From Hyphomicrobiales bacterium (GTDB lineage: Bacteria; Pseudomonadota; Alphaproteobacteria; Rhizobiales; Rhizobiaceae), in the NCBI GenBank assembly GCA_900473915.1, contig UCNG01000014.1, positions 94,745 to 158,744 on the forward strand: a stretch of DNA of 64,000 nt. The letters are read 5' to 3'. Numbering within the stretch: the first letter of the stretch is position 1; each line of letters opens with the position of its first letter. Below are positions 9,201-60,246 of this stretch, in pieces. The notes beneath the pieces were generated by a model that saw nothing but the letters and a program-made list of their open reading frames with translations, was not told the DNA's origin and did no database searches. Made by a program: the position numbers and the translations under genes.

Positions 9201-10094
9201 CGGCTCCCGCTTCAGCGCGAACGCCATCAGCGAACCCGCCACTTTCGGCTGCCGCGCCAGACTGGAGATCGCGGACCAGTAGGCGCGCTTGGTCAGGCAA
9301 TCCCGGACCATCGCGAACAACCGGTCCCGATGCGGCAGGCTCGCCCCCTCATGATCGAAAAAGGACCGGAAACCAGCCTCGAACTCCCGATTCCAGTTCA
9401 AAATGCCATTCACCGCCGCCGACTGGTTCTGGGCGTGTGAACGCGCAAAGGCCTGTATCCGGCTCGTCGACGCAACAGCCCCGCGCATGGCGATGCGCAG
9501 CCACATTTCCAGATCGTCCGTATGGGAAAGCGAAGTGCGGTAATATCCAGCCTGTTTCTGGATCGCGGTCCGCACGACTGCGGTGGGGCCGATCACCGGA
9601 TTAAATGCATGGCGGCAGGCAAATTCGATAAATTCATCCCCGGAGCGTATCCGCCAATCACCCCCCGCCTGGTCTGTAATAGCGTGATGAGGTTCCCCGT
9701 CATCGGCCTTCATCCTGCCGGTCGCGCCGTGCGCCAGATGAACGTCCGGGTGTTGCGAGAGCAATCCCGCCGCCCTTTCCAGCGCGCCGCCTGCCAGCAG
9801 GTCATCCGAACAGAGGATCAGGAAATAATCCGATGCGGCCCAGTCTATGCCTTCGTTGAACGAAGCATGCGGCCCCAGATTTTTGCTGCGAAGCAGCAAC
9901 TCCACCCGGCTGTCCCCGGCGGCAAGGCCCTTTGCCACCTCGACGCTGTCATCGGTTGAGGCATTGTCGATAATGAGCAGACGGACATCGACGCCTGCCT
10001 GGCCCAAAACACTGTTGGCGCTGAGAGAAAGATACCGGCCATAGTTGAAATTGGGGATCACGACGTCAATCGTCGGCAATTTGTATTTGACCAT
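9129..10094 (-). CDS. Glycosyltransferase family 2 (GT-A fold)
   Basis: A 321-residue inverting glycosyltransferase. The N-terminal nucleotide-binding motif is IDVVIPNFNYGRYL, then LIIDNASTDDSVEVA, KNLGPHASFNEGI and the DXD-type LILCSDDLL near residue 97. SHTDDLEMWLRIAMRG fits the acceptor/base region. No transmembrane segment is evident. It lies 11 bases behind the Wzx gene on the same strand and is the last gene of that two-gene operon. It probably adds a repeat-unit sugar. Its 3' end overlaps the pyruvyltransferase gene tail to tail by 72 bases. Confidence 0.85.
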   Translation of the reverse strand: MVKYKLPTIDVVIPNFNYGRYLSLSANSVLGQAGVDVRLLIIDNASTDDSVEVAKGLAAGDSRVELLLRSKNLGPHASFNEGIDWAASDYFLILCSDDLLAGGALERAAGLLSQHPDVHLAHGATGRMKADDGEPHHAITDQAGGDWRIRSGDEFIEFACRHAFNPVIGPTAVVRTAIQKQAGYYRTSLSHTDDLEMWLRIAMRGAVASTSRIQAFARSHAQNQSAAVNGILNWNREFEAGFRSFFDHEGASLPHRDRLFAMVRDCLTKRAYWSAISSLARQPKVAGSLMAFALKREPLLAVVPPFDYLLKRSAWRNGRGA

Positions 10095-49906: not shown

Positions 49907-50686
49907 TCAGCGATAGACGATACCGCCGTCGGTCAGGATGGCCTGACCGGTGATATAGTCGGAATCCGGGCTTGAGAGGAACGACACCAGAGCCGCCACA
50001 TCGTCCGGCGTCTGGGCGCGGCCAAGCGCGATGCCATCCACATATTTCTTGTAGGTCTCGCCTTTCGGCGCGCCTGTGATTTCCGAGAAGCGCTCATCGA
50101 TCTCGACCCACATATCGGTGCCGACAATGCCGGGGCAATAGGCGTTGACCGTGATCCCGGCGCTTGCATATTCCTTGGCGGCGGCTTGCGTCAGCGCGCG
50201 CACCGCGAATTTTGTCGCCGAGTAGACGCCCAGCATCGCAAACCCGTCATGGCCGGCAATGGAAGAGGCATTGATGATCTTGCCCTTCTGCTTGCGCGCC
50301 TTGAACTTGGCGGCTGCCGCCTGAATGCCCCACAGGACGCCATCGACATTGATGCGGAAAATCCGTTCCACCTCTTCCGGCTTCACGTCGGCAATCGGCT
50401 GAACCTGCGCGATACCGGCATTGTTGACGATCACATCGAAGCCGCCAAGCGTTTTTTCCGCATGGTCAATCGCGGCATAGACATCATCGCGCTTGCTGAC
50501 ATCGGCGGAAAAAGTGGACGCCTTGCGGCCCAGCGCCTCGACTTCCTTCCGCACCGCATCAAGCTTGTCGGCCTTCAGGTCGACCAGCGCGATATCGAAA
50601 CCGTCCTTGGCCAGTCGCAATGCGATGCCGCGCCCAATGCCCTGTGCTGCGCCCGTGACAAGCGCGACCTTACCGTTTGCCGACAT
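49907..50686 (-). CDS. SDR dehydrogenase, acetoin/diacetyl reductase-like
   Basis: A 259-residue classical [19 protein letters not shown] (cofactor), [22 protein letters not shown] (Ser), [13 protein letters not shown] (YxxxK) and [13 protein letters not shown]. It follows the BudC/ButA type (meso-2,3-butanediol dehydrogenase, acetoin reductase), with the hallmark [17 protein letters not shown] precedes the ATG. The ligand is not certain because many polyol dehydrogenases share this pattern. It is monocistronic, with a stem-loop at its 3' end. Confidence 0.85.
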
Positions 50687-50844: not shown

Positions 50845-51705
50845 TCAGCGCTCGGAGAATTCCAGAAGCGTGCCGCTGGCATTCTGCGGCAGCACGGCGA
50901 TGCCTGCTGGTGTCGTCACATAAGAAACGCCGTTGGCTTCAAGAACGCCCTGCGCCTTGTCCAGCGAAGCGACACGGACCCGAAGGACCGCGAAGGCCTG
51001 ACCCGGCGTTTTGCTGAAATCGACGCCGGGATAGATTTCCGCCGCCCGGTCGTTGGTCACCACCCATATGTCAGCCGAGCGCGGGCCTGTCGAGACCTTC
51101 CAACCGCCATCCTGTGCCTCAGCTCTCCCATCCGCGAACAGGCGGGCAAACCCCTTGGCGGCTGTTTGCGGGTCGGATGAAATGGCAATAATGGCAGAAA
51201 GGCCGTTCGCACCGTTTGGATGCTCGATCAGCTCCGGCAGCCAGACGGTCTCGCGGGTTTTGTGCTGGCACATGAACACCATGCCTTGCGGCACTTCACT
51301 GTCGGCAAAGGACACGGTTTCAAAAGCCGCGACACCCTCGCCGCCGCCCGGCAGTTCCACGGGGCGCTGGAAAGCGCCGACTTCGCCCGTCGTGATGCCA
51401 AGAGCGCCCAGTTCGGCCTTGGCGTCTCGCGCATTGTCGATCCGGCAGGCGATGGCATGAAGCCCCTCGCCCTGCGCCGCCAGTTTCTCGCGCTGGTGCA
51501 GATTGCCCGGCGTCTCGGTGACAATGCCGAGCAGCTCGAAATAATCTTCCGGAAACATGATGGTGTAATTGCCGGTGCCTTTTTCCTTGCTGTGCAGCCC
51601 GCGCGGGCTCAGCGTAAAACCGAAACGGCGATAGTGCGCGGCACTTTTCTCCAGATCATCGACCAGCAGGAAAATATGATCGACGCCCTTGACCGGATGA
51701 GACAT
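50845..51705 (-). CDS. VOC/glyoxalase-like protein (Glyoxalase_5 type)
   Basis: A 286-residue protein: an N-terminal VOC-like domain (about 1-170, VKGVDHIFLLVDDLEKSAAHYRRFGF; FPEDYFELLGIV) and a second domain (about 180-286, ending NASGTLLEFSER). Relatives are called glyoxalase-like or lyase of unknown substrate. I chose the ATG at 51705 (GGGA upstream) over ATG at 51729 or 51801. It diverges from the peptide ABC operon. Confidence 0.8.
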   Translation of the reverse strand: MSHPVKGVDHIFLLVDDLEKSAAHYRRFGFTLSPRGLHSKEKGTGNYTIMFPEDYFELLGIVTETPGNLHQREKLAAQGEGLHAIACRIDNARDAKAELGALGITTGEVGAFQRPVELPGGGEGVAAFETVSFADSEVPQGMVFMCQHKTRETVWLPELIEHPNGANGLSAIIAISSDPQTAAKGFARLFADGRAEAQDGGWKVSTGPRSADIWVVTNDRAAEIYPGVDFSKTPGQAFAVLRVRVASLDKAQGVLEANGVSYVTTPAGIAVLPQNASGTLLEFSER

Positions 51706-52018
51706 GCAAAATTCCCTTTTCAATTTCATCGCCGCCGCCGGTTTGCCCGCTATTTTGCGGGAAACCGGCCTACCGCCGATCTTCATCAGAAAAATACACA
51801 TTTATTGGCGCGGAACCGCTGATATATTTTTCTAAATTTATGCTTCATATTAGTTTATCTTGACAATATCGTCACGCATTCTAGCATGCCAGTGCTTGTG
51901 TAGAATAAAGACCTTCTGAAGCAGCTTTTCGAGCAATTTCAGGGGCTTGAACAATATTGGGACCTGCGGGAAAAGAGGCTTGAAAGCCCTCCCTCAACGT
52001 CCTTCAGGGGAACAGAGA
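51706..52018. other. Divergent promoter region of the peptide-type ABC operon
   Basis: This 313-base gap is AT-rich in its middle and holds no visible gene. The rightward promoter is listed separately; no strong operator symmetry was seen. Confidence 0.45.
51860..51887 (+). promoter_or_regulatory. Candidate sigma-70 promoter of the peptide-type ABC operon
   Basis: TTGACA (51860-51865), a 16-base spacer and TAGCAT (51882-51887), followed by a leader of about 125 bases before the ATG at 52019. Confidence 0.6.
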
Positions 52019-53605
52019 ATGCATATCAGAAAGACTGGCCTTGGCCTGTTTGTTGCGGCGTTTTCGCTTGCGACGGCGCCTTCGCACGCCGAAGAAGTGA
52101 AGCGCGGCGGCACTGTCATCGTCCATATGAATACCGAGCAGGGTGTGCTTAACCCTGCGCTGCGCGCCTCGACCGGCGTCTATCAGATCACCGGCCGCAT
52201 CATGGAGCCGCTGATCGACCGCACCTATGAAGGATATGTGCCGGTTCTGGCGACAAGCTGGTCTTCCTCGGAAGACGGCAAGGCCATCACCTTCAAGCTG
52301 CGCGAAAATGTGCGCTGGCATGACGGCAAGCCTTTCAGCTGCGATGACGTCTCCTATACCGCGATGAACTTCTGGAAGACGCAGCTCAACTATTCGACCA
52401 CGCTCCAGGCCAATCTGGAAGCGGTGGACTGCACCGATCCGCACACCGCCGTGTTCCGCTATTCCAAGCCGATGCCGCTCGAACTGCTCGTCGCGGCCAT
52501 GCCCGATCTCGGCCATCCCGTGCCGAAGCATCTTTATGAGGGCACGGATATTCTGAAGAACAAGTATAACGCCGCGCCAATCGGCACGGGACCGTTCAAG
52601 TTCGTCGAATATGAGCGCGGCCAGCACATTATTGCCGAACGCAATGACGATTACTGGCGCGGAAAGGAATATCCTTATCTCGACCGCATCATCTGGCGTT
52701 TCATGCCGGACAAGGCCGCTGCCGCCGCAGCGCTTGAAGCAGGCGAAATGATGGAAACCGCCTTCAACGGCATTTCCATGTCGGACACCGAACGTCTCCA
52801 GAAGGATGGCCGCTTCGATACCGGCACCAAGGGTTTTGAGAACAACGTCGCCCACTCGACAATCGAGTTCAACCTGCGCAATCCGATCCTCGCCAATCTG
52901 AAGGTTCGCCAGGCGATCTATCACGCGCTCGACATCGACTTCGCGATCAAGACGATCATGCGCGGCTATGCCAAGCCGGGTCGCGGCCCGATCCCCAGCA
53001 CCGGCGGTGCCAACTATACGGATCAGGTTCAGACTTACCCGTATGATGTGGAAAAGGCAAAGAAACTGCTCGATGAAGCCGGTTATCCCGCTGGCCCCGA
53101 TGGCATCCGCTTCAAGCTCCGCCACCGTCCAGCACCTTGGGGCGAATATACGCAGCTCTGGGCTGAATATTACGCTCAGGCGATGAAGGAAGTCGGCATC
53201 GACGTCCAGATTCTCACCAACGACGCGCCGGGTTTCCTCAACGGCGTCTATCGCGATCACGACTTCGATACGGCCAATGGCTGGCACCAGTTCCGCTCCG
53301 ATCCGGCGGTTTCCACCACGGTTTGGCTGCGCTCCGGCGCTCCGGTCGGCACGGCATGGTCCAACCAGTTCGGCTACAAGTCCGACGAGATGGACAGCCT
53401 GATCGATCAGGCCGCTTCCGAGCTCGATCCGGCCAAGCGCGCCGATCTCTACCACCAGATCCAGCAGCTTGAGATGAAGGACCTGCCGGTCATCTTCGCC
53501 ATCGAGCATCCGTTCGTCGGCGTGACCAACAAGGTGTTGAAGAACCACCACAACACGCCGCGCTGGGATTCCTCCAGCTGGTATGATCTGTGGATCGACC
53601 AATAA
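52019..53605 (+). CDS. Peptide/nickel-type ABC transporter substrate-binding protein (SBP family 5)
   Basis: A 528-residue periplasmic protein with a Sec signal peptide (KTGLGLFVAAFSLATAPSHAEE). SBP_bac_5 motifs are ITFKLRENVRWHDGKPFSCDDV, GTGPFKFVEYERGQHI, NPILANLKVRQAIYHALD and KAKKLLDEAGYPAGPDG. I chose the ATG at 52019, with AGGGGA upstream, over the in-frame 51947. The ligand could be a peptide, an opine or an acylated amino compound; the operon (oxidase, ATC-hydrolase-like, M20 amidohydrolase) favours a modified amino acid. Confidence 0.9.
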   Translation: MHIRKTGLGLFVAAFSLATAPSHAEEVKRGGTVIVHMNTEQGVLNPALRASTGVYQITGRIMEPLIDRTYEGYVPVLATSWSSSEDGKAITFKLRENVRWHDGKPFSCDDVSYTAMNFWKTQLNYSTTLQANLEAVDCTDPHTAVFRYSKPMPLELLVAAMPDLGHPVPKHLYEGTDILKNKYNAAPIGTGPFKFVEYERGQHIIAERNDDYWRGKEYPYLDRIIWRFMPDKAAAAAALEAGEMMETAFNGISMSDTERLQKDGRFDTGTKGFENNVAHSTIEFNLRNPILANLKVRQAIYHALDIDFAIKTIMRGYAKPGRGPIPSTGGANYTDQVQTYPYDVEKAKKLLDEAGYPAGPDGIRFKLRHRPAPWGEYTQLWAEYYAQAMKEVGIDVQILTNDAPGFLNGVYRDHDFDTANGWHQFRSDPAVSTTVWLRSGAPVGTAWSNQFGYKSDEMDSLIDQAASELDPAKRADLYHQIQQLEMKDLPVIFAIEHPFVGVTNKVLKNHHNTPRWDSSSWYDLWIDQ

Positions 53606-53614
53606 GCAAGGCCC

Positions 53615-53642
53615 AGCCGCTGCCGGTCAACCGGCGGCGGCT
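53615..53642 (+). other. Intra-operon stem-loop after the binding-protein gene
   Basis: AGCCGCTGCCGGT (53615-53627) and ACCGGCGGCGGCT (53630-53642) pair with one G.U wobble around a tight loop. It sits in the 85-base gap before the permease gene and probably limits read-through or protects the upstream mRNA, raising binding-protein levels. Confidence 0.6.
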
Positions 53643-53690
53643 CCCCTGTTTTATGAATGCCGAAATGAATATCTTGCAGGATAATCCGCA

Positions 53691-54674
53691 ATGCCCCTGC
53701 CCCCGATCCTGACTTTTGCGCTTCGGCGCATCTTGCAGGCCATCCCCGTCATTCTCCTGATCATGATCGGGTCATTCCTGCTGCTCAAGCTTGCCCCCGG
53801 CGATACGGTGGACGCGCTTGTCGGCGACATGGGCGGCGCAGACCCGCAATTCGTCGCCAATCTGCGCACTGAATATGGCCTCGACCAGCCGGTCTGGACG
53901 CAGCTGTGGATTTACATGACCAAGCTGGCGCAGTTCGATTTCGGCTGGTCCTATGTCTATGAACAGCCGGTGCTGGACGTGCTGAAAGCCCGCCTCGTGC
54001 CGACGCTCCTGCTGATGGTTTCCTCGCTTTCGGTGGCCTTCATTTTCGGCATCGCGCTCGGTGCCTTTGCGGCGCGGCGCGCCTACTCGCTGACCGATAA
54101 TGCGATTTCCACGCTCGGCCTTGTCTTCTACGCCATGCCAAGCTTCTTCCTCAGCCTCATCCTGATGTTCATCTTTTCGGTCAAGCTCGGCTGGCTGCCG
54201 GTCGGCGGCTACAAGACGCTTGGCGGATTTTATACCGGCTGGAAGAATGTCTGGGATATTGCCGTCCATCTCGTCATGCCAACGACGGCGCTTTCGCTTA
54301 TCTATCTCGCTTTCTACATGCGCCTGATGCGCACCAGCGTTTTGGAAGTGGCCGACCTCGATTATGTGCGCACCGCGCGCGCCAAGGGCGCCAGCGGCGC
54401 AAGGCTGATGTTCCACCACATCATGCGCAACGCCTTCCTGCCTGTCGTCACGCTGCTCGGCCTGCAATTTTCTACCGTGCTTGGCGGCTCGGTCGTGATC
54501 GAAACGATCTTCTCACTGCCCGGCCTCGGCCAGCTTGCCTATACATCCGTGATCAAGCGCGACCTCAACACGCTGATGGGCATCATCTTCCTGTGCTCGG
54601 TGCTGGTGGTGATCGTGAATTTCATCACCGATCTCATCTATGCACGGCTTGATTCCAGGATCGAACTGTCATGA
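53691..54674 (+). CDS. Peptide-type ABC transporter permease (DppB/OppB-like)
   Basis: A 327-residue inner-membrane protein with six to seven hydrophobic segments. Motifs are PVILLIMIGSFLLLKLAPGDTVDAL at the start and the cytoplasmic EAA loop VLEVADLDYVRTARAKGASGARLMFHHIMRNA. GLGQLAYTSVIKRDLNTLMGIIFL is the C-terminal hallmark. It shares ATGA with the next permease gene. Confidence 0.9.
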   Translation: MPLPPILTFALRRILQAIPVILLIMIGSFLLLKLAPGDTVDALVGDMGGADPQFVANLRTEYGLDQPVWTQLWIYMTKLAQFDFGWSYVYEQPVLDVLKARLVPTLLLMVSSLSVAFIFGIALGAFAARRAYSLTDNAISTLGLVFYAMPSFFLSLILMFIFSVKLGWLPVGGYKTLGGFYTGWKNVWDIAVHLVMPTTALSLIYLAFYMRLMRTSVLEVADLDYVRTARAKGASGARLMFHHIMRNAFLPVVTLLGLQFSTVLGGSVVIETIFSLPGLGQLAYTSVIKRDLNTLMGIIFLCSVLVVIVNFITDLIYARLDSRIELS

Positions 54675-55546
54675 CTTCACAGGACCTTTCCCTTACCCGC
54701 CCGCAGGTCTCGCGCACGAAAATTCTGTGGCAGCGCTTCAGCCGCAACCGCGCCGCCGTGCTGGGCCTCATCCTCTTCATCGTCGTTGTGCTGATCGCGC
54801 TTTTGGCCGATGTCATTGCGCCCGGCGACCCGCTGCGGCGCGCTGGCGATCCGCTGGTCTGGCCGTTCATCAATGCGGCAACGCCGCTCGGCACCGACCA
54901 GCTTGGGCGCGATATCATGGCAGGCATCTTCCATGGCGCGCGCATCTCGCTCATGATCGGCGTGGTGGCCACCCTGATTTCGATCTTCATCGGCATCATT
55001 ATAGGCGCGCTTGCCGGCTATTATGGCGGCTGGGTGGATGACATTTTGATGCGCATCACCGAAGCCTTCCAGACGGTGCCAAGCTTCGTGCTGCTTCTGA
55101 CATTGGTGGCGATCTTCGGCTCGTCCATCGAAAACATCATCATCTGCATCGGCATTGTTTCATGGACAGCGCCCGCTCGCATGGTGCGCGCCGAGTTTCT
55201 GGCGCTGCGCAAGCGTGAATTTATCGACGCCGCGCGCAATCTGGGTGTCGGAAACGCATCAATCATCTTCCGCGAAATCCTGCCGAATGCCCTGCCGCCG
55301 GTGATCGTCTTCGCATCCGTGGTGATGGCCACGTCCATCCTGATGGAAAGCGCGCTCGCCTTCCTCGGCCTTGGCGATCCGAACTATGCGAGCTGGGGCA
55401 ACATGATCGGCCAGGGCCGCGCCGTGCTGCGCACCGACTGGTTCTGCTCGGTCATTCCTGGCATCGCCATTCTGCTCACCGTCCTGTCCTTCAGCCTGCT
55501 TGGCGAGGGCCTGAACGACGCGCTCAATCCGAGGCAGAAGAAATAA
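54671..55546 (+). CDS. Peptide-type ABC transporter permease (DppC/OppC-like)
   Basis: A 291-residue inner-membrane protein with an N-terminal OppC_N segment (NRAAVLGLILFIVVVLIALLADVIAPGDP), GTDQLGRDIMAGIFHGARISLMIGVVA, EAA loop LALRKREFIDAARNLGVGNASIIFREILPNA and ESALAFLGLGDPNYASWG. It overlaps its partner permease by 4 bases and the ATPase gene by one base (TAATG), so the transporter is strictly coupled. Confidence 0.9.
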   Translation: MTSQDLSLTRPQVSRTKILWQRFSRNRAAVLGLILFIVVVLIALLADVIAPGDPLRRAGDPLVWPFINAATPLGTDQLGRDIMAGIFHGARISLMIGVVATLISIFIGIIIGALAGYYGGWVDDILMRITEAFQTVPSFVLLLTLVAIFGSSIENIIICIGIVSWTAPARMVRAEFLALRKREFIDAARNLGVGNASIIFREILPNALPPVIVFASVVMATSILMESALAFLGLGDPNYASWGNMIGQGRAVLRTDWFCSVIPGIAILLTVLSFSLLGEGLNDALNPRQKK

Positions 55547-57183
55547 TGACCGCCGCACCTGTGCTTGAAATCAAAAACCTGCAAATCGCGCTGCCGAAAG
55601 GCGCCGACCGGCCTTATGCCTTGCAAGACCTTTCACTCACCATCAATCCCGGCGAGATCGTCTGCCTCGTCGGCGAAAGCGGCTCCGGCAAGTCGCTTTC
55701 GGCAGGCGCGATCATGCGCCTTCTGCCGGAACCGCATGTGCGCGTGACCAATGGCACGATCAGGCTTGAAGGCACCGATCTTTATTCGCTCAGCGAAGCC
55801 GATATGAAGAAGCTGCGCGGCAACCGCATCGGCATGATTTTTCAGGAGCCGATGACCGCGCTCAACCCGCAAAAGACGGTTGGCTGGCAGATCGATGAAG
55901 TGCTGCGCCTGCACACGAAACTCGGCCGCAAGGAGCGCCGCGCCGCCGTTCTCGACATGCTGGCAGAGGTGAAAATTCCTGACCCGGAATCCGCCTATAA
56001 CGCCTATCCGCACCAGATTTCCGGCGGCCAGCGCCAGCGTGTCATGATCGCCATGGCGCTGATCCTGAAACCGCGTCTCATCATCGCCGACGAACCGACC
56101 ACGGCGCTCGACGTGACCACGCAGGCGCAAATCCTCAAACTGATCCGCGACCTGCAACGCGAGCATAATACCGGCATCCTGTTCATCACGCATGATTTTG
56201 GCGTGGTCGCGGAGATCGCCGACCGCGTGGCCGTCTTGCGGCTCGGCGAACTGGTCGAGGAAGGCCCGGCAAATGAAGTGCTGAACCACCCGCAGCACGC
56301 CTACACAAAGGCGCTGATTGCCTCGGTTCCAGCCCTCACGCCCCCCGAACCGAAGCCAGCGGGAGACGCGCAGCCGATCATTCTCAAGGCGAGCGCCTTA
56401 CGGAAAACCTTCAGGGCGCGCGGCGGCTTGCTGACCGGCAAGCGCAGCGCCGTCTCCGCCGTGAAAGACCTTTCCTTCGAACTGCGTCAGGGCGAAACGC
56501 TTGGCGTCATCGGCGAAAGCGGTTCCGGCAAGACGACCGTTTCGCGGATCGTGACGCGACTGCTGGAAGCCGATAGCGGCAAGGTCGATGTGAATGGCCG
56601 CGATTTTCTGAGCGCCAGCCCGCGCGAAGTACGCGCCATGCGCAAGGATATCCAGATGGTCTTTCAGGACCCTATGGCCTCGCTCAATCCGCGCCGTCGC
56701 GTCGTGGACCTGATCGCGCAGGGTCCGATCGTCCATGGCGTGCCGAAGGAACAGGCACACGCGAAGGCACGCGAATTGCTGGAACTGGTCGAACTTTCGC
56801 CCGCTGCCGCCGACCGTTTCCCGCACGAGTTCTCGGGCGGACAGCGCCAGCGTATCGGCATCGCCCGCGCACTGGCGCTGGAGCCGCGCATCATCGTGGC
56901 CGACGAACCGGTCTCTGCGCTCGATGTTTCGGTGCAGGCGCAAGTGCTGCGACTTCTGGCGGATTTGCGCGAAAGGCTGAACCTGTCGCTCCTTTTCGTA
57001 ACGCACGATCTGCGCGTCGCAGCCCAGCTTTGTGACCGCGTCATCGTGATGTCCAAGGGCGAGATCGCCGAAACCGGGCCGACGGCGCAAGTCTTCGCCA
57101 ACCCGCAACATGAATATACACAGCGCCTGCTAGCCTCCATCCCCGGCAAGAGCTGGACGCCACCCCGTTTTGAAAATGCGTGA
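55546..57183 (+). CDS. Peptide-type ABC transporter ATPase, DppD-DppF fusion
   Basis: A 545-residue protein with two complete ATPases. Domain 1 (about 1-255): Walker A GESGSGKS, signature ISGGQRQR, Walker [13 protein letters not shown]. Domain 2 (about 280-540): Walker A GESGSGKT, signature FSGGQRQR, Walker [13 protein letters not shown]. Each has the oligopeptide-transporter C-terminal extension ([28 protein letters not shown]). The fusion replaces the usual separate D and F subunits. It is directly followed by the oxidoreductase. Confidence 0.9.
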
Positions 57184-57187
57184 AGCC

Positions 57188-58489
57188 ATGCAAAAAGTAG
57201 AATTTCCACCCTCCATCTGGGCCGCAACCGCACCCGAACGCATACCCGCCCCCGCGCTCACAAAAGACGCGGAAGCCGATATTGTCATTGTCGGCGGCGG
57301 CTTTACGGGGCTTTCGGCGGCACTCCATCTGGCAAAGCGCGGCAAGCGCGTCATCCTGCTGGAAGGCAAAGCGGTCGGCTGGGGCGCATCTGGGCGCAAT
57401 AATGGCCAGGTGATCCCGACCATGACCGCCGCCGAGCCGGATGCCATTGCCAAGCGTTATGGTGCTTCGGGCGAGCGTTTTGCCCGATTGATCGGCAACA
57501 GCGCCGACATATTGTTTTCCATCGTGCGCGATGAAAACATCGAGGCCGAGGCTGAGCAGAACGGCTGGTTCCAGCCTGCCCATTCGCCGGGCCGGGTAAA
57601 ACTTTCGCAAAGTCGCGTGGAAGCGTGGAAGCGCTTCGGCTTCCCGGCAGAGTTTCTCGACCGCACGGCAACATCGCAGCTATTGGGCAGCGATTTCTGG
57701 TATGGCGGCATGTTCAACCCGACAGGCGGGCATATCAATCCGCTGGCTTTCGCGCGCGGCCTTGCCGCGGCTGCCGAACGCTACGGCGCAACCATCCACG
57801 AACAAAGCCCGGTCGTCACCTATGCTCAAGCGGGCGACCATTGGGAGGTGAAGACCGCCAGCGCCACAGTGCGCGCCAAGGGCTTTCTGCTTGCCACCAA
57901 CGCCTATACCGGCGAACTGCGCGAAGGGCTTGCCCCGCGCCTTGCCCGCACCATCGTGCCGGTGCTCTCATGGCAGATGGCGACAGCGCCGGTCAGCGAC
58001 AATCTGCGCGCAACGATCTTGCCCGGCAGGCAGGCGGTTTCCGACACACGCGGCGACCTGCGCTTCTTCCGCTACGATGCCCGCAACCGGCTGATTACCG
58101 GCGGCGTGGTGATGGGCGATTTCAACGTGGCTGAGCGCGTCAGGCGCAAGACGGCGCGCAACATGGCGGAAGCCTTTCCAGCCCTTGGCGAACCGGAAAT
58201 CACCCATGTGTGGAGCGGCTATATCGGCATGACATGGGATCGCTTTCCGCGTGTCCATCAACTCGGCTCCAATGGCTGGGCATGGATCGGCTGCAACGGT
58301 CGCGGCGTTGCGCTTGGCACATCGCTTGGCCGGGAATTCGCGCGCGCACTGGATGGCGAGCCTGTGCAGGAACTTGCGCTTCCCGTTTCGGAACCGGCGC
58401 CGCTGCCTTTTCATAAAGTCGCCCGAAAAATCGCACCGTTCTATCTCGCATGGCTTCGGCGCAAGGATCTCACCGAGCCAAATCTCTAA
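57188..58489 (+). CDS. FAD-dependent oxidoreductase, DAO/PuuB-like
   Basis: A 433-residue flavoprotein with the dinucleotide-binding motif IVIVGGGFTGLSAALHLAKRG near residue 32 and GWGASGRNNGQ, typical of DAO-type amine and amino-acid oxidases (PuuB, glycine oxidase). TTG 57170, ATG 57176 and ATG 57188 are possible starts; the last has GAAG upstream and does not overlap the ATPase stop. It could oxidise the imported compound at an amine or secondary amine. It lies in the middle of the operon. Confidence 0.8.
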   Translation: MQKVEFPPSIWAATAPERIPAPALTKDAEADIVIVGGGFTGLSAALHLAKRGKRVILLEGKAVGWGASGRNNGQVIPTMTAAEPDAIAKRYGASGERFARLIGNSADILFSIVRDENIEAEAEQNGWFQPAHSPGRVKLSQSRVEAWKRFGFPAEFLDRTATSQLLGSDFWYGGMFNPTGGHINPLAFARGLAAAAERYGATIHEQSPVVTYAQAGDHWEVKTASATVRAKGFLLATNAYTGELREGLAPRLARTIVPVLSWQMATAPVSDNLRATILPGRQAVSDTRGDLRFFRYDARNRLITGGVVMGDFNVAERVRRKTARNMAEAFPALGEPEITHVWSGYIGMTWDRFPRVHQLGSNGWAWIGCNGRGVALGTSLGREFARALDGEPVQELALPVSEPAPLPFHKVARKIAPFYLAWLRRKDLTEPNL

Positions 58490-58526
58490 CGCATCTCATT
58501 CAACGTTCATGTGAAAGGTCAGGTCC

Positions 58527-59006
58527 ATGAATCAAATGTCAATTCTCGAACGTCGCCGCATCGAAGCGCTGGTTCTCAAGAATGTCTACGAAGTTATCCG
58601 CGAGCGCTCCGGCGAGGAAGAAGCGCAAGCCGCAATCGGCGAAGCCGTCAGCCGCTCGGCCATCGAACAGGGCAAAAGCTTTGCCAACGAGCTTGGCCGC
58701 ACGCCGACCATACAGGATTTTGCCGATATCCAGCCGCTGTGGACGAAGGAAAATGCGCTGGAAATCGATGTGATTTCGCAGGGCGAAGATCATTTCGATT
58801 TCAACGTGACGCGCTGCCGCTATTCGGAAATGTACCGCGAGATGGGCCTTGGCCATATCGGGCACCTGCTCTCCTGCAATCGCGATGGCGATTTCTGCAT
58901 CGGCTACAACCCCGACATGAAGCTGGAGCGCACGCAGACCATCATGAAGGGCGCAAGCCACTGCGATTTCCGCTACCGCCTCGAATCCAAAGACAAGGAA
59001 GCCTGA
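58527..59006 (+). CDS. L-2-amino-thiazoline-4-carboxylate (ATC) hydrolase-family protein
   Basis: A 159-residue protein. The sequence ALEIDVISQGEDHFDFNVTRCRYSEMYREMGLGHIGHLLSCNRDGDFCIGYNP region and TQTIMKGASHCDFRY fit the small ATC-hydrolase family; conserved Cys residues in VTRCRY, LSCNRD, DFCIGY and SHCDFR are visible. The founding enzyme opens the thiazoline ring of L-ATC to N-carbamoyl-L-cysteine, but many members have other or unknown substrates. It sits two bases before the M20 amidohydrolase, a pairing that recalls the ATC pathway but is not proof of it. Confidence 0.7.
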   Translation: MNQMSILERRRIEALVLKNVYEVIRERSGEEEAQAAIGEAVSRSAIEQGKSFANELGRTPTIQDFADIQPLWTKENALEIDVISQGEDHFDFNVTRCRYSEMYREMGLGHIGHLLSCNRDGDFCIGYNPDMKLERTQTIMKGASHCDFRYRLESKDKEA

Positions 59007-59007
59007 T

Positions 59008-60180
59008 ATGCCGGTTGAAAACTGGACTTCGAACCAGATTGAAGAACTGGTCGCCTTCCGCCGCGACCTGCACCAGAATCCGGAACTGCTCTATGACGTC
59101 AACCGCACCGCCGAAAAGGTGGCCGAGGCGCTGCGCGCTGCGGGTGTCGATGAGGTGGTGACCGGCATCGGGCGCACCGGCGTCGTCGGCGTCATTCGCG
59201 GCCAGTCCAACCGTTCGGGCCGGGCCATCGGCCTGCGCGCCGACATGGACGCCCTGCCGATCCTTGAGGAAACCGGCGCTGAATGGTCGTCGAAAGTGCC
59301 GGGCAAGATGCATGCCTGCGGCCATGACGGCCATACGACCATGCTTCTGGGCGCTGCCCGCGAACTGGCGCAAAGCCGCGCATTCGACGGCACGGTCATC
59401 GTGATCTTCCAGCCTGCCGAAGAAGGCGGCGCTGGCGCCAAGGCGATGATTGACGACGGTTTGTTCAAGCGCTGGCCGGTCAACGAAGTCTACGGCATGC
59501 ACAACCGCCCGAACCTTGCGGTCGGGCATTTCACCATCAATTCCGGCCCGATCATGGGATCGGTGGATGTGCTGGATATCACCATTGAAGGCGTTGGCGG
59601 ACATGCGGCCTCTCCGCACCAGACCATCGACCCCATTCCGGTGACGGCGGCGCTCATTCAGGCGATCCAGACGCTGACGGCACGCACCATCGATCCGCTG
59701 GATTCGGCTGTGATTTCGATCACCACCATTCAGGGCGGCGATGCGTTCAATGTCATTCCGCAGAAAATCCGCCTGACCGGCACGGTGCGCACGCTGCGCG
59801 AGGAAGTGCGCAACCATATCGAGGAGAAACTCACCCGCGCCGTGCAAGGCATTGCCGATGCTTTCGGAGCAAAGGCCGCGCTCGACTACCAGCGCAATTA
59901 TCCGGTGACGGTCAATCACGAGCGGGAGACCGAGCTTGCGGCGATTGCCGCCGAAGCCGTCTCTGGCGCTGAACGCGTCACGCGCGACATGCCGGCAACG
60001 CTTGGCGGCGAGGATTTTGCCTTCATGCTGAACGAGGTGCCGGGCGCGATGATCAACATCGGCAATGGCCCGAGCGCCAATCTGCACCACCCGAAATACG
60101 ACTTTAACGATGATGTGATCGCCTGGGGCTGCTCCTACTGGACAACCCTCGTGCGGCATCGCCTGCCAATCAGCAACTGA
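59008..60180 (+). CDS. M20-family amidohydrolase (hippurate/N-acyl-amino-acid hydrolase type)
   Basis: A 390-residue dinuclear metallohydrolase. Motifs are RRDLHQNPEL, GLRADMDALPI, KMHACGHDGHTTMLLG (metal ligands), FQPAEEGGAGAKAM (catalytic Glu pair), GMHNRPNL and GGEDFAFMLNEVPGAM. It removes an acyl or carbamoyl-like group from an amino acid or a related amide, with the dimerisation domain GHAASPHQTIDPIP in the middle. Its ATG lies one base after the preceding stop. It is the last gene of the operon, before the terminator at 60220. Confidence 0.9.
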   Translation: MPVENWTSNQIEELVAFRRDLHQNPELLYDVNRTAEKVAEALRAAGVDEVVTGIGRTGVVGVIRGQSNRSGRAIGLRADMDALPILEETGAEWSSKVPGKMHACGHDGHTTMLLGAARELAQSRAFDGTVIVIFQPAEEGGAGAKAMIDDGLFKRWPVNEVYGMHNRPNLAVGHFTINSGPIMGSVDVLDITIEGVGGHAASPHQTIDPIPVTAALIQAIQTLTARTIDPLDSAVISITTIQGGDAFNVIPQKIRLTGTVRTLREEVRNHIEEKLTRAVQGIADAFGAKAALDYQRNYPVTVNHERETELAAIAAEAVSGAERVTRDMPATLGGEDFAFMLNEVPGAMINIGNGPSANLHHPKYDFNDDVIAWGCSYWTTLVRHRLPISN

Positions 60181-60219: not shown

Positions 60220-60246
60220 GGGCGGTCCGCTGGGCCGCCCTTTTTT
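60220..60246 (+). terminator. Rho-independent terminator of the peptide-type ABC operon
   Basis: GGGCGGTCC (60220-60228), GCT loop, GGGCCGCCC (60232-60240), then six T. One G.U wobble. It ends the operon 52019-60180. Confidence 0.85.

What the first reader, a model, noticed from the sequence alone, without database searches (positions are those of the whole stretch)
52019..60180. Candidate undescribed pathway: uptake, oxidation and deacylation of a modified amino acid
Seen: an eight-gene-scale unit ABC transporter (binding protein, two permeases, fused ATPase), DAO-type oxidase, ATC-hydrolase-family protein and M20 amidohydrolase, with promoter at 51860 and terminator at 60220 and 1-4 base overlaps. 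Known: ATC hydrolase opens a thiazoline ring to an N-carbamoyl amino acid, and amidohydrolases then release the amino acid. Inferred: the operon imports a ring-containing or acylated amino compound (thiazoline-, hydantoin- or opine-like), oxidises it and frees the amino acid. I know of no characterised system with this exact set.
Basis: partly seen in the sequence, partly recalled or inferred. Interest (0 to 1): 0.7.

Follow-up and report, generated by a model that had tools for sequence, protein, structure and literature searches.

The report
Operon salvaging cysteine from sulfur rings
Seven genes in a soil bacterium appear to import a ring-shaped cysteine derivative, oxidise it, open the ring and release cysteine: a plausible recycling pathway for aldehyde-trapped cysteine that still needs testing at the bench.

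Summary
The operon is real: seven (not eight) co-directional genes at 52019-60180 encode a Dpp-type importer, a DAO/pipecolate-oxidase-like flavoenzyme, an ATC_hydrolase-family protein and an M20 aminoacylase. Nearest named relative: Brucella pseudintermedia (Ochrobactrum group). Best reading: thiazolidine-4-carboxylates (cysteine-aldehyde adducts such as thioproline) are imported, oxidised to the thiazoline, opened by the ATC-like hydrolase to N-acyl-cysteine, and deacylated to cysteine. Pointers: in 129 loci chosen by ATC similarity, the oxidase accompanies the aminoacylase-type M20 (70 of 79 oxidase loci) and hardly ever the N-carbamoylase type (1 of 79), which marks 8 of 50 oxidase-free loci. 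A Cds1-like desulfhydrase (13) or SufS-like desulfurase (35) accompanies 48 of 79, never both. The nearest solved M20 is the N-acetylcysteine deacetylase ScmP/YxeP; the nearest solved binding protein is CtaP, linked to cysteine transport. The ATC-like protein is predicted (pLDDT 92.7) to have a V4R/TRAPP-like fold with three invariant cysteines. No step is shown biochemically, the associations are not phylogenetically independent, nine oxidase loci lack the M20, and one relative lacks the oxidase. A new variant of a known kind; confidence in the mechanism 0.5.

The parts
50845..51801 (-). divergent VOC/Glyoxalase_3 protein; constant companion of the Dpp-type layout, role unknown
   Evidence: PF13468 131.8 bits; present in 65 of 66 Dpp-layout and 0 of 13 HAAT-layout oxidase loci
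51860..51887 (+). probable promoter TTGACA-16-TAGCAT
   Evidence: pattern 10 of 12 but the number of sites is not above chance; 10 of 12 positions conserved in at least 85% of 14 aligned rows
51935..52018 (+). conserved leader of unknown role (sequence conserved in Brucellaceae-type loci, no structural covariation)
   Evidence: alignment of 20 rows; covariation term -0.05; no Rfam match at gathering score in the window
52019..53605 (+). substrate-binding protein, SBP_bac_5 family; N-terminus looks like a signal peptide by eye (longest ORF starts at TTG 51947)
   Evidence: nearest solved sequence 5isu Lmo0135 (also for the Pseudosulfitobacter and Agrobacterium orthologues)
53615..53642 (+). terminator-like hairpin between binding-protein and permease genes (12 pairs, 10 G-C)
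   Evidence: role not tested
53691..54674 (+). ABC permease 1 (DppB/OppB type)
54671..55546 (+). ABC permease 2 (DppC/OppC type)
55546..57183 (+). fused double ABC ATPase (DppDF type)
57188..58489 (+). FAD-dependent oxidase, DAO family, nearest curated model AmaA L-pipecolate oxidase; proposed thiazolidine-4-carboxylate oxidase (longest ORF starts at TTG 57170)
   Evidence: PF01266 217.2 bits; NF050086 267.3 bits, cut-off 600 not reached
58527..59006 (+). ATC_hydrolase-family protein, proposed thiazoline-4-carboxylate hydrolase; V4R/TRAPP-like fold, invariant C97, C117, C146
   Evidence: PF14196 144 bits; invariant columns in 67 rows; model pLDDT 92.7; fold matches
59008..60180 (+). M20 aminoacylase-type metallohydrolase, proposed N-acyl-cysteine deacylase
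   Evidence: TIGR01891 355.1 bits, over cut-off; nearest solved sequence 1ysj YxeP, 268 bits
60220..60240 (+). intrinsic terminator-like hairpin
   Evidence: 9 pairs, 8 G-C, TTTTTT tail

Best explanation
A transport-coupled salvage pathway for thiazolidine-4-carboxylates, the rings that cysteine forms with aldehydes (simplest case thioproline, from formaldehyde). The Dpp-type ABC importer takes the compound up. The DAO/AmaA-like flavoenzyme oxidises the ring N-C2 bond to the 2-thiazoline-4-carboxylate, as L-pipecolate oxidase is recalled to oxidise the ring carbon distal to the carboxyl-bearing one. The ATC_hydrolase-family protein adds water to the thiazoline and opens it to an N-acyl-L-cysteine (N-formyl-cysteine from thioproline). 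The M20 aminoacylase removes the acyl group and releases L-cysteine, which many relatives then degrade with a Cds1-like desulfhydrase or a SufS-like desulfurase encoded in the same cluster. Shown here: gene content, families, conservation and gene association. Inferred: every substrate and every reaction.
For: (1) Order of chemistry matches order of genes: oxidase, thiazoline-opening family, N-deacylase. (2) Precedents for the steps: bacteria and isolated mitochondria convert thioproline to N-formylcysteine (stated with references in PMC9814826, passages); sarcosine oxidase (recalled as a DAO-family enzyme) oxidises L-thioproline as a minor substrate (PMC12582975, passages); the nearest solved relative of the M20 is YxeP = ScmP, an N-acetylcysteine deacetylase (PMC12757645, passages). 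(3) The end product points to cysteine: a Cds1-like enzyme (561.7 bits to NF052478, cut-off 600) in 13 and a SufS-like enzyme with the motif RGGCSCAGPYGH conserved in 33 of 33 aligned copies in 35 of 79 oxidase loci, never both. (4) Type switch: oxidase with aminoacylase-M20 70 of 79, with carbamoylase-M20 1 of 79; oxidase-free loci 3 and 8 of 50. (5) Oxidase, ATC and aminoacylase-M20 are still found together in 7 of 13 oxidase loci whose importer is of the branched-chain (HAAT) type. (6) The nearest solved binding protein is CtaP, associated with cysteine transport, for three orthologues (PMC10269559, passages).
Against: No reaction was tested. The co-occurrence counts come from related loci: on the ATC tree only 5 supported independent pairs differ in the oxidase (aminoacylase-M20 goes the same way in 2.1 on average, the other way in 0.0, median p 0.5), so they are not independent evidence. 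Nine of 79 oxidase loci have no aminoacylase-M20 in the stretch held (L030, L035, L060, L064, L074, L078-L081), and L027 (Brucella gallinifaecis) has importer, ATC and M20 without the oxidase. The window and the 16 loci assigned to Brucellaceae have neither desulfhydrase nor desulfurase in the cluster, and the nearest genome G001 has only distant Cds1 relatives (best 27% identity). Several ATC-family proteins sit in other contexts (SDR, alcohol dehydrogenase, CoA transferase), so the family is not tied to thiazolines. YkuR, in the same M20 group as ScmP, is a N-acetyldiaminopimelate deacetylase, so this homology does not fix the substrate. Thioproline is a poor, self-inhibiting substrate of sarcosine oxidase. 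N-formylcysteine also appears without enzymes from cysteine and formaldehyde. Sarcosine-oxidase-type enzymes may oxidise the alpha carbon of such rings (recalled), which would not yield N-acyl-L-cysteine. The role of the VOC protein is unexplained.
Confidence: 0.5

Rival explanations
1. Variant of the known DL-ATC pathway: the substrate is 2-amino-thiazoline-4-carboxylate (from cyanide and cystine, or from isothiocyanate-cysteine adducts; sources recalled), the ATC-like protein makes N-carbamoyl-cysteine, the M20 cleaves it, and the oxidase serves a side substrate.
For: The ATC protein is 51-52% identical to that of S. meliloti, which stands beside an annotated racemase-family gene and a carbamoylase-type M20. 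The review PMC10821248 (passages) describes DL-ATC to cysteine and its further breakdown by cysteine desulfhydrase.
Against: The M20 is far below the carbamoylase model (38.5 bits against 204) and over the aminoacylase-type model; no racemase among the operon genes; the oxidase would be idle although it accompanies the ATC gene in 79 of 129 loci.
Confidence: 0.17
2. The operon degrades N-acylated or S-substituted cysteine conjugates, like the B. subtilis scm/yha/ytn clusters: import, deacylation by the M20, oxidation of the freed amino acid by the DAO, with the ATC-like protein acting on a cyclised imine product.
For: Nearest solved M20 is ScmP; those clusters are predicted or shown to salvage alkylated cysteine (PMC12757645, passages).
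Against: The acetyltransferase and monooxygenase that mark those clusters are not among the operon genes.
Confidence: 0.13
3. The substrate is a sulfur-free cyclic amidine or imine (ectoine-like, pyrroline or piperidine carboxylate) or a small peptide or opine; the sulfur enzymes in relatives are incidental.
For: M20 scores 320.2 bits with DoeB2 of ectoine breakdown (cut-off 550) and the oxidase 267.3 with AmaA (cut-off 600); some members of the ATC family occur in contexts without recognised sulfur genes.
Against: No ectoine hydrolase among the operon genes; two unrelated cysteine-degrading enzyme families accompany 48 of 79 oxidase loci.
Confidence: 0.15
4. Uptake and breakdown of thiazoline/thiazolidine natural products, such as siderophore fragments or plant thiazolines, rather than aldehyde-cysteine adducts; same chemistry, larger acyl group.
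For: A siderophore uptake cluster lies next to the Agrobacterium copy and an NRPS near an ATC gene in Martelella.
Against: Single cases; the Martelella stretch shows neither DAO nor M20. Siderophore and NRPS genes were not scored in my survey of loci, so how often they are neighbours is unknown.
Confidence: 0.05

Closest known systems
DL-ATC to L-cysteine pathway of Pseudomonas (ATC racemase, L-ATC hydrolase, carbamoyl-cysteine amidohydrolase)
   Same: ATC_hydrolase-family ring opener followed by an M20-family N-deacylase in the S. meliloti-like loci, with cysteine desulfhydrase acting afterwards
   Different: oxidase added, no racemase in the operon, M20 of aminoacylase and not carbamoylase type, own importer
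Thioproline oxidation by proline enzymes (PutA, ProC) and mitochondria to N-formylcysteine
   Same: same proposed first step and N-formyl-cysteine intermediate
   Different: there a side activity of proline metabolism; here a dedicated operon with importer, ring-opening hydrolase and deacylase
B. subtilis scm (yxe), yha and ytn S-alkylcysteine salvage clusters
   Same: M20 N-acetylcysteine deacetylase as last step of cysteine salvage
   Different: no acetyltransferase or monooxygenase here; oxidase and ATC-like hydrolase instead
Ectoine degradation (DoeA/DoeB; recalled)
   Same: logic of ring-opening hydrolase followed by an M20-type deacetylase
   Different: no DoeA homologue among the operon genes; sulfur chemistry proposed here
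MopR/PoxR/DmpR phenol-sensor (V4R) domains and TRAPP Bet3
   Different: those are sensors or trafficking proteins; sequence identity 8-14%

Membership tests
ATC_hydrolase (PF14196) | profile score over gathering cut-off | tested here: met
   144.0 bits against 28.1
ATC_hydrolase (PF14196) | cluster of three conserved cysteines shared with V4R domains (PMC5847659, passages) | tested here: met
   C97, C117, C146 invariant in 67 rows, 10 of them divergent paralogues; that these are the same three as in the paper was not checked
ATC_hydrolase (PF14196) | opens 2-amino-thiazoline-4-carboxylate | not testable with these tools
   needs enzyme assay
DL-ATC pathway | carbamoylase-type (TIGR01879) M20 partner | tested here: not met
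   38.5 bits against cut-off 204
DL-ATC pathway | ATC racemase gene in the unit | tested here: not met
   no Asp/Glu racemase-family protein among the operon genes; it could lie elsewhere, no whole genome is held
L-pipecolate oxidase AmaA (NF050086) | model cut-off 600 bits | tested here: not met
   267.3 bits: related, not shown to be the same enzyme
M20 amidohydrolase subfamily (TIGR01891) | cut-off 153.75 bits | tested here: met
   355.1 bits
N-acetylcysteine deacetylase (ScmP/YxeP) | deacetylates N-acetylcysteine | not testable with these tools
   nearest solved relative by sequence, 268 bits, with HACGHD and other motifs aligned
scm/yha/ytn S-alkylcysteine cluster | acetyltransferase and monooxygenase genes in the cluster | tested here: not met
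   none among the operon genes
Dpp/Opp ABC importer | SBP_bac_5 protein, two permeases, ATPase pair | tested here: met
Ectoine deacetylase DoeB2 (NF038260) | cut-off 550 bits | tested here: not met
   320.2 bits
V4R/TRAPP-like fold | structural match over most of the domain | tested here: met

The most novel reading that the evidence does not exclude
A dedicated, transporter-coupled catabolic pathway for cysteine-aldehyde adducts (thiazolidine-4-carboxylates) in alphaproteobacteria, in which a small metal-thiolate enzyme built on a V4R/TRAPP-like sensor fold opens the oxidised ring. It would return trapped cysteine and turn the aldehyde into a carboxylic acid, a cysteine-based route of aldehyde clearance beside glutathione.
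Probability: 0.4. Interest if true: 0.68.

Novelty: new variant of a known kind. Interest (0 to 1): 0.5.

Why it matters
Thioproline and related adducts form wherever cysteine meets formaldehyde or other aldehydes, and in the papers I saw their turnover is a side reaction of proline enzymes. A dedicated operon would supply genes for that turnover, suggest a natural role for at least one branch of the ATC_hydrolase family (named after an industrial substrate), and make the idea testable in ordinary marine and soil bacteria. It would also let annotators improve a possibly misleading name in many alphaproteobacterial genomes.

Tried and rejected
Own-genome search: none held. RNA switch in the leader: conserved in sequence, but covariation term -0.05 and only 3 of 23 pairs with changes on both sides, and no Rfam match at gathering score in the window; the one weak match (Atu_Ti4, other strand, E 0.41, 17.8 bits against 40) was judged chance. 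Phylogenetic test of the oxidase/M20 association: direction as expected but far too few independent pairs; the same for carbamoylase-M20 and for the two cysteine-degrading enzymes. A first ORF caller by length gave many wrong-strand ORFs and was replaced by a codon-scored one (which still missed some ATC genes) and by six-frame stop-to-stop translation, on which the counts rest. Sequence search of solved structures with the ATC protein: nothing (best E 1). Hydantoin, opine and ectoine readings: see rivals. Literature: ten searches; none of the listed titles or abstract starts describes this gene set, but long lists were seen in part and asked other questions. PMC8882339 on thiazolidine carboxylates is not held. 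Papers were seen as listings or passages only, none in full.

Sampling limits: the 129 loci are the window; 8 plasmid loci (from 85 records with a match); the best 80 of 549 relatives in the genome scan; and 40 of the 82 places listed. All were chosen by ATC similarity and some are near-copies (about 20 Brucellaceae-type loci; L002 and L034 are one species). Of 129, L193 was left out of the tree for a low score. L066 was set to 'no carbamoylase' in the tree, because its M20carb lies distally, but is counted with it in the table. Identity thresholds for calling a partner present were my own choice.
Full report
WHAT IS THERE. Gaps are 85, -4, -1, 4, 37 and 1 bases (with starts at ATG 52019 and ATG 57188), as in an operon. 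Pattern scans for promoters and terminators give no more sites than shuffled sequence. The 51860 promoter is supported instead by conservation (10 of 12 positions in at least 85% of 14 aligned rows), and the 60220 hairpin by its strength and place. The count is seven genes, not eight.

WHERE IT IS FROM. DNA of 51848-60143 is 79.7% identical to Ochrobactrum quorumnocens; the ATC protein is 97-98% identical to that of Brucella pseudintermedia, an Ochrobactrum-group species by recalled history. No whole genome of the window is held.

CONSERVATION. The oxidase is near the ATC gene in 79 of 129. Of these 79, 66 have the Dpp-type importer and 13 a branched-chain (HAAT) importer. In 7 of the 13 HAAT loci the oxidase and the aminoacylase M20 are both there, for example L039, where DAO, ATC and M20 are adjacent after the HAAT genes. 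So the enzymes can stay together while the transporter differs. The divergent VOC gene is present in 65 of 66 Dpp loci and 0 of 13 HAAT loci. In a sample of 398 Pseudomonadota genomes, 30 had an ATC-family match, 29 over the family's cut-off.

THE CARBAMOYLASE CONTRAST. S. meliloti pSymA carries a gene annotated as Asp/Glu racemase family (Pfam: arylmalonate decarboxylase-like 72.1 bits, Asp_Glu_race 28.6, just under its cut-off of 31; EutA-like 205.5 bits, cut-off 318), the ATC gene and an M20 of the hydantoinase/carbamoylase type (TIGR01879 465.9 bits), and no oxidase in the stretch held. This resembles the DL-ATC pathway (racemase, hydrolase, carbamoyl-cysteine amidohydrolase; PMC10821248, passages). 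The window's M20 is instead of the aminoacylase subfamily (TIGR01891 355.1 bits; TIGR01879 38.5 against 204). Over 129 loci the oxidase goes with the aminoacylase type (70 of 79; oxidase-free 3 of 50) and not with the carbamoylase type (1 of 79; oxidase-free 8 of 50). An N-carbamoyl intermediate arises if the thiazoline carries a 2-amino group; an N-acyl intermediate arises if a thiazolidine made from an aldehyde is oxidised. The oxidase/aminoacylase pairing is what the second route needs. The test is weak: with the tree taken into account there are only 5 supported independent pairs.

THE END PRODUCT. Right after the M20 gene, Agrobacterium has a protein scoring 561.7 bits with L-cysteine desulfhydrase Cds1 (cut-off 600). 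The Pseudosulfitobacter and Sagittula copies have a class V PLP enzyme between ATPase and oxidase that is SufS-like (155.2 bits, cut-off 475.1) and conserves, in 33 of 33 aligned copies, the motif RGGCSCAGPYGH and an HK pair; reading these as the desulfurase cysteine and PLP lysine is recalled knowledge. Among the 79 oxidase loci 13 have the first, 35 the second, 31 neither and none both (Fisher p 3.4e-4, uncorrected for kinship). Two unrelated enzymes that take sulfur from cysteine filling one slot suggest that cysteine is the product. The window's own group has neither, and its nearest genome has only distant relatives of Cds1 (27%).

ENZYME BY ENZYME. Oxidase: nearest curated model AmaA, L-pipecolate oxidase (267.3 bits, cut-off 600 not reached); AmaA-type regiochemistry (recalled) would oxidise the ring carbon distal to the carboxyl-bearing one, as needed. 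Sarcosine oxidase takes L-thioproline as a minor, inhibitory substrate (PMC12582975, passages). M20: nearest solved sequence is YxeP, now ScmP, an N-acetylcysteine deacetylase (PMC12757645, passages); the same M20 group also holds YkuR, a N-acetyldiaminopimelate deacetylase. Binding protein: nearest solved sequence Lmo0135, CtaP, associated with cysteine transport, for three orthologues (PMC10269559, passages); such binding proteins are broadly alike, so this is a pointer only.

CHEMISTRY PRECEDENT. [quoted passage not shown] it also reports N-formylcysteine forming from cysteine and formaldehyde in buffer without enzymes. PMC12899673 (passages) measures L-thioproline oxidation by E. coli ProC.

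AGAINST. Nine of 79 oxidase loci lack the aminoacylase in the stretch held, and one Brucellaceae locus, L027, lacks the oxidase. Some ATC-family members without these partners stand beside alcohol dehydrogenases, a CoA transferase or SDRs, so the family name does not prove thiazoline chemistry. The VOC protein and the leader have no place in the scheme.

VERDICT. I put 0.5 on thiazolidine to thiazoline to N-acyl-cysteine to cysteine, less on any one aldehyde adduct. It is a new variant of a known kind, not a categorically new system.

Noticed in passing
window 51935-52018: Leader before the binding-protein gene is highly conserved in 20 aligned Brucellaceae-type rows (with single-base indels) but shows no covarying structure and no Rfam match; perhaps a small-RNA target site.
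   Followed up: partly
window 49907-50686 (-): SDR gene beside the operon is about 82% identical in DNA over about 750 bases to genes annotated acetoin reductase or SDR oxidoreductase on Klebsiella and Enterobacter plasmids, suggesting transfer between distant groups.
   Followed up: no
window 50845-51801 (-): Glyoxalase_3/VOC protein accompanies 65 of 66 Dpp-type oxidase loci but none of 13 HAAT-type loci; function unknown.
   Followed up: partly
L027 around 9900-9986: Brucella gallinifaecis has importer, ATC and M20 genes but no oxidase found between ATPase and ATC.
   Followed up: no
L003:4743-5276 and 12 other HAAT-type loci: A second, divergent ATC-family paralogue (13-22% identical to the window's in the 10 rows) stands before the HAAT transporter genes; possibly a second subunit or a second ring-opening step.
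   Followed up: partly
   Followed up: no
L004 (Martelella plasmid): ATC gene with HAAT importer, Asp/Glu racemase and a monooxygenase-like flavoprotein, near a non-ribosomal peptide synthetase.
   Followed up: no
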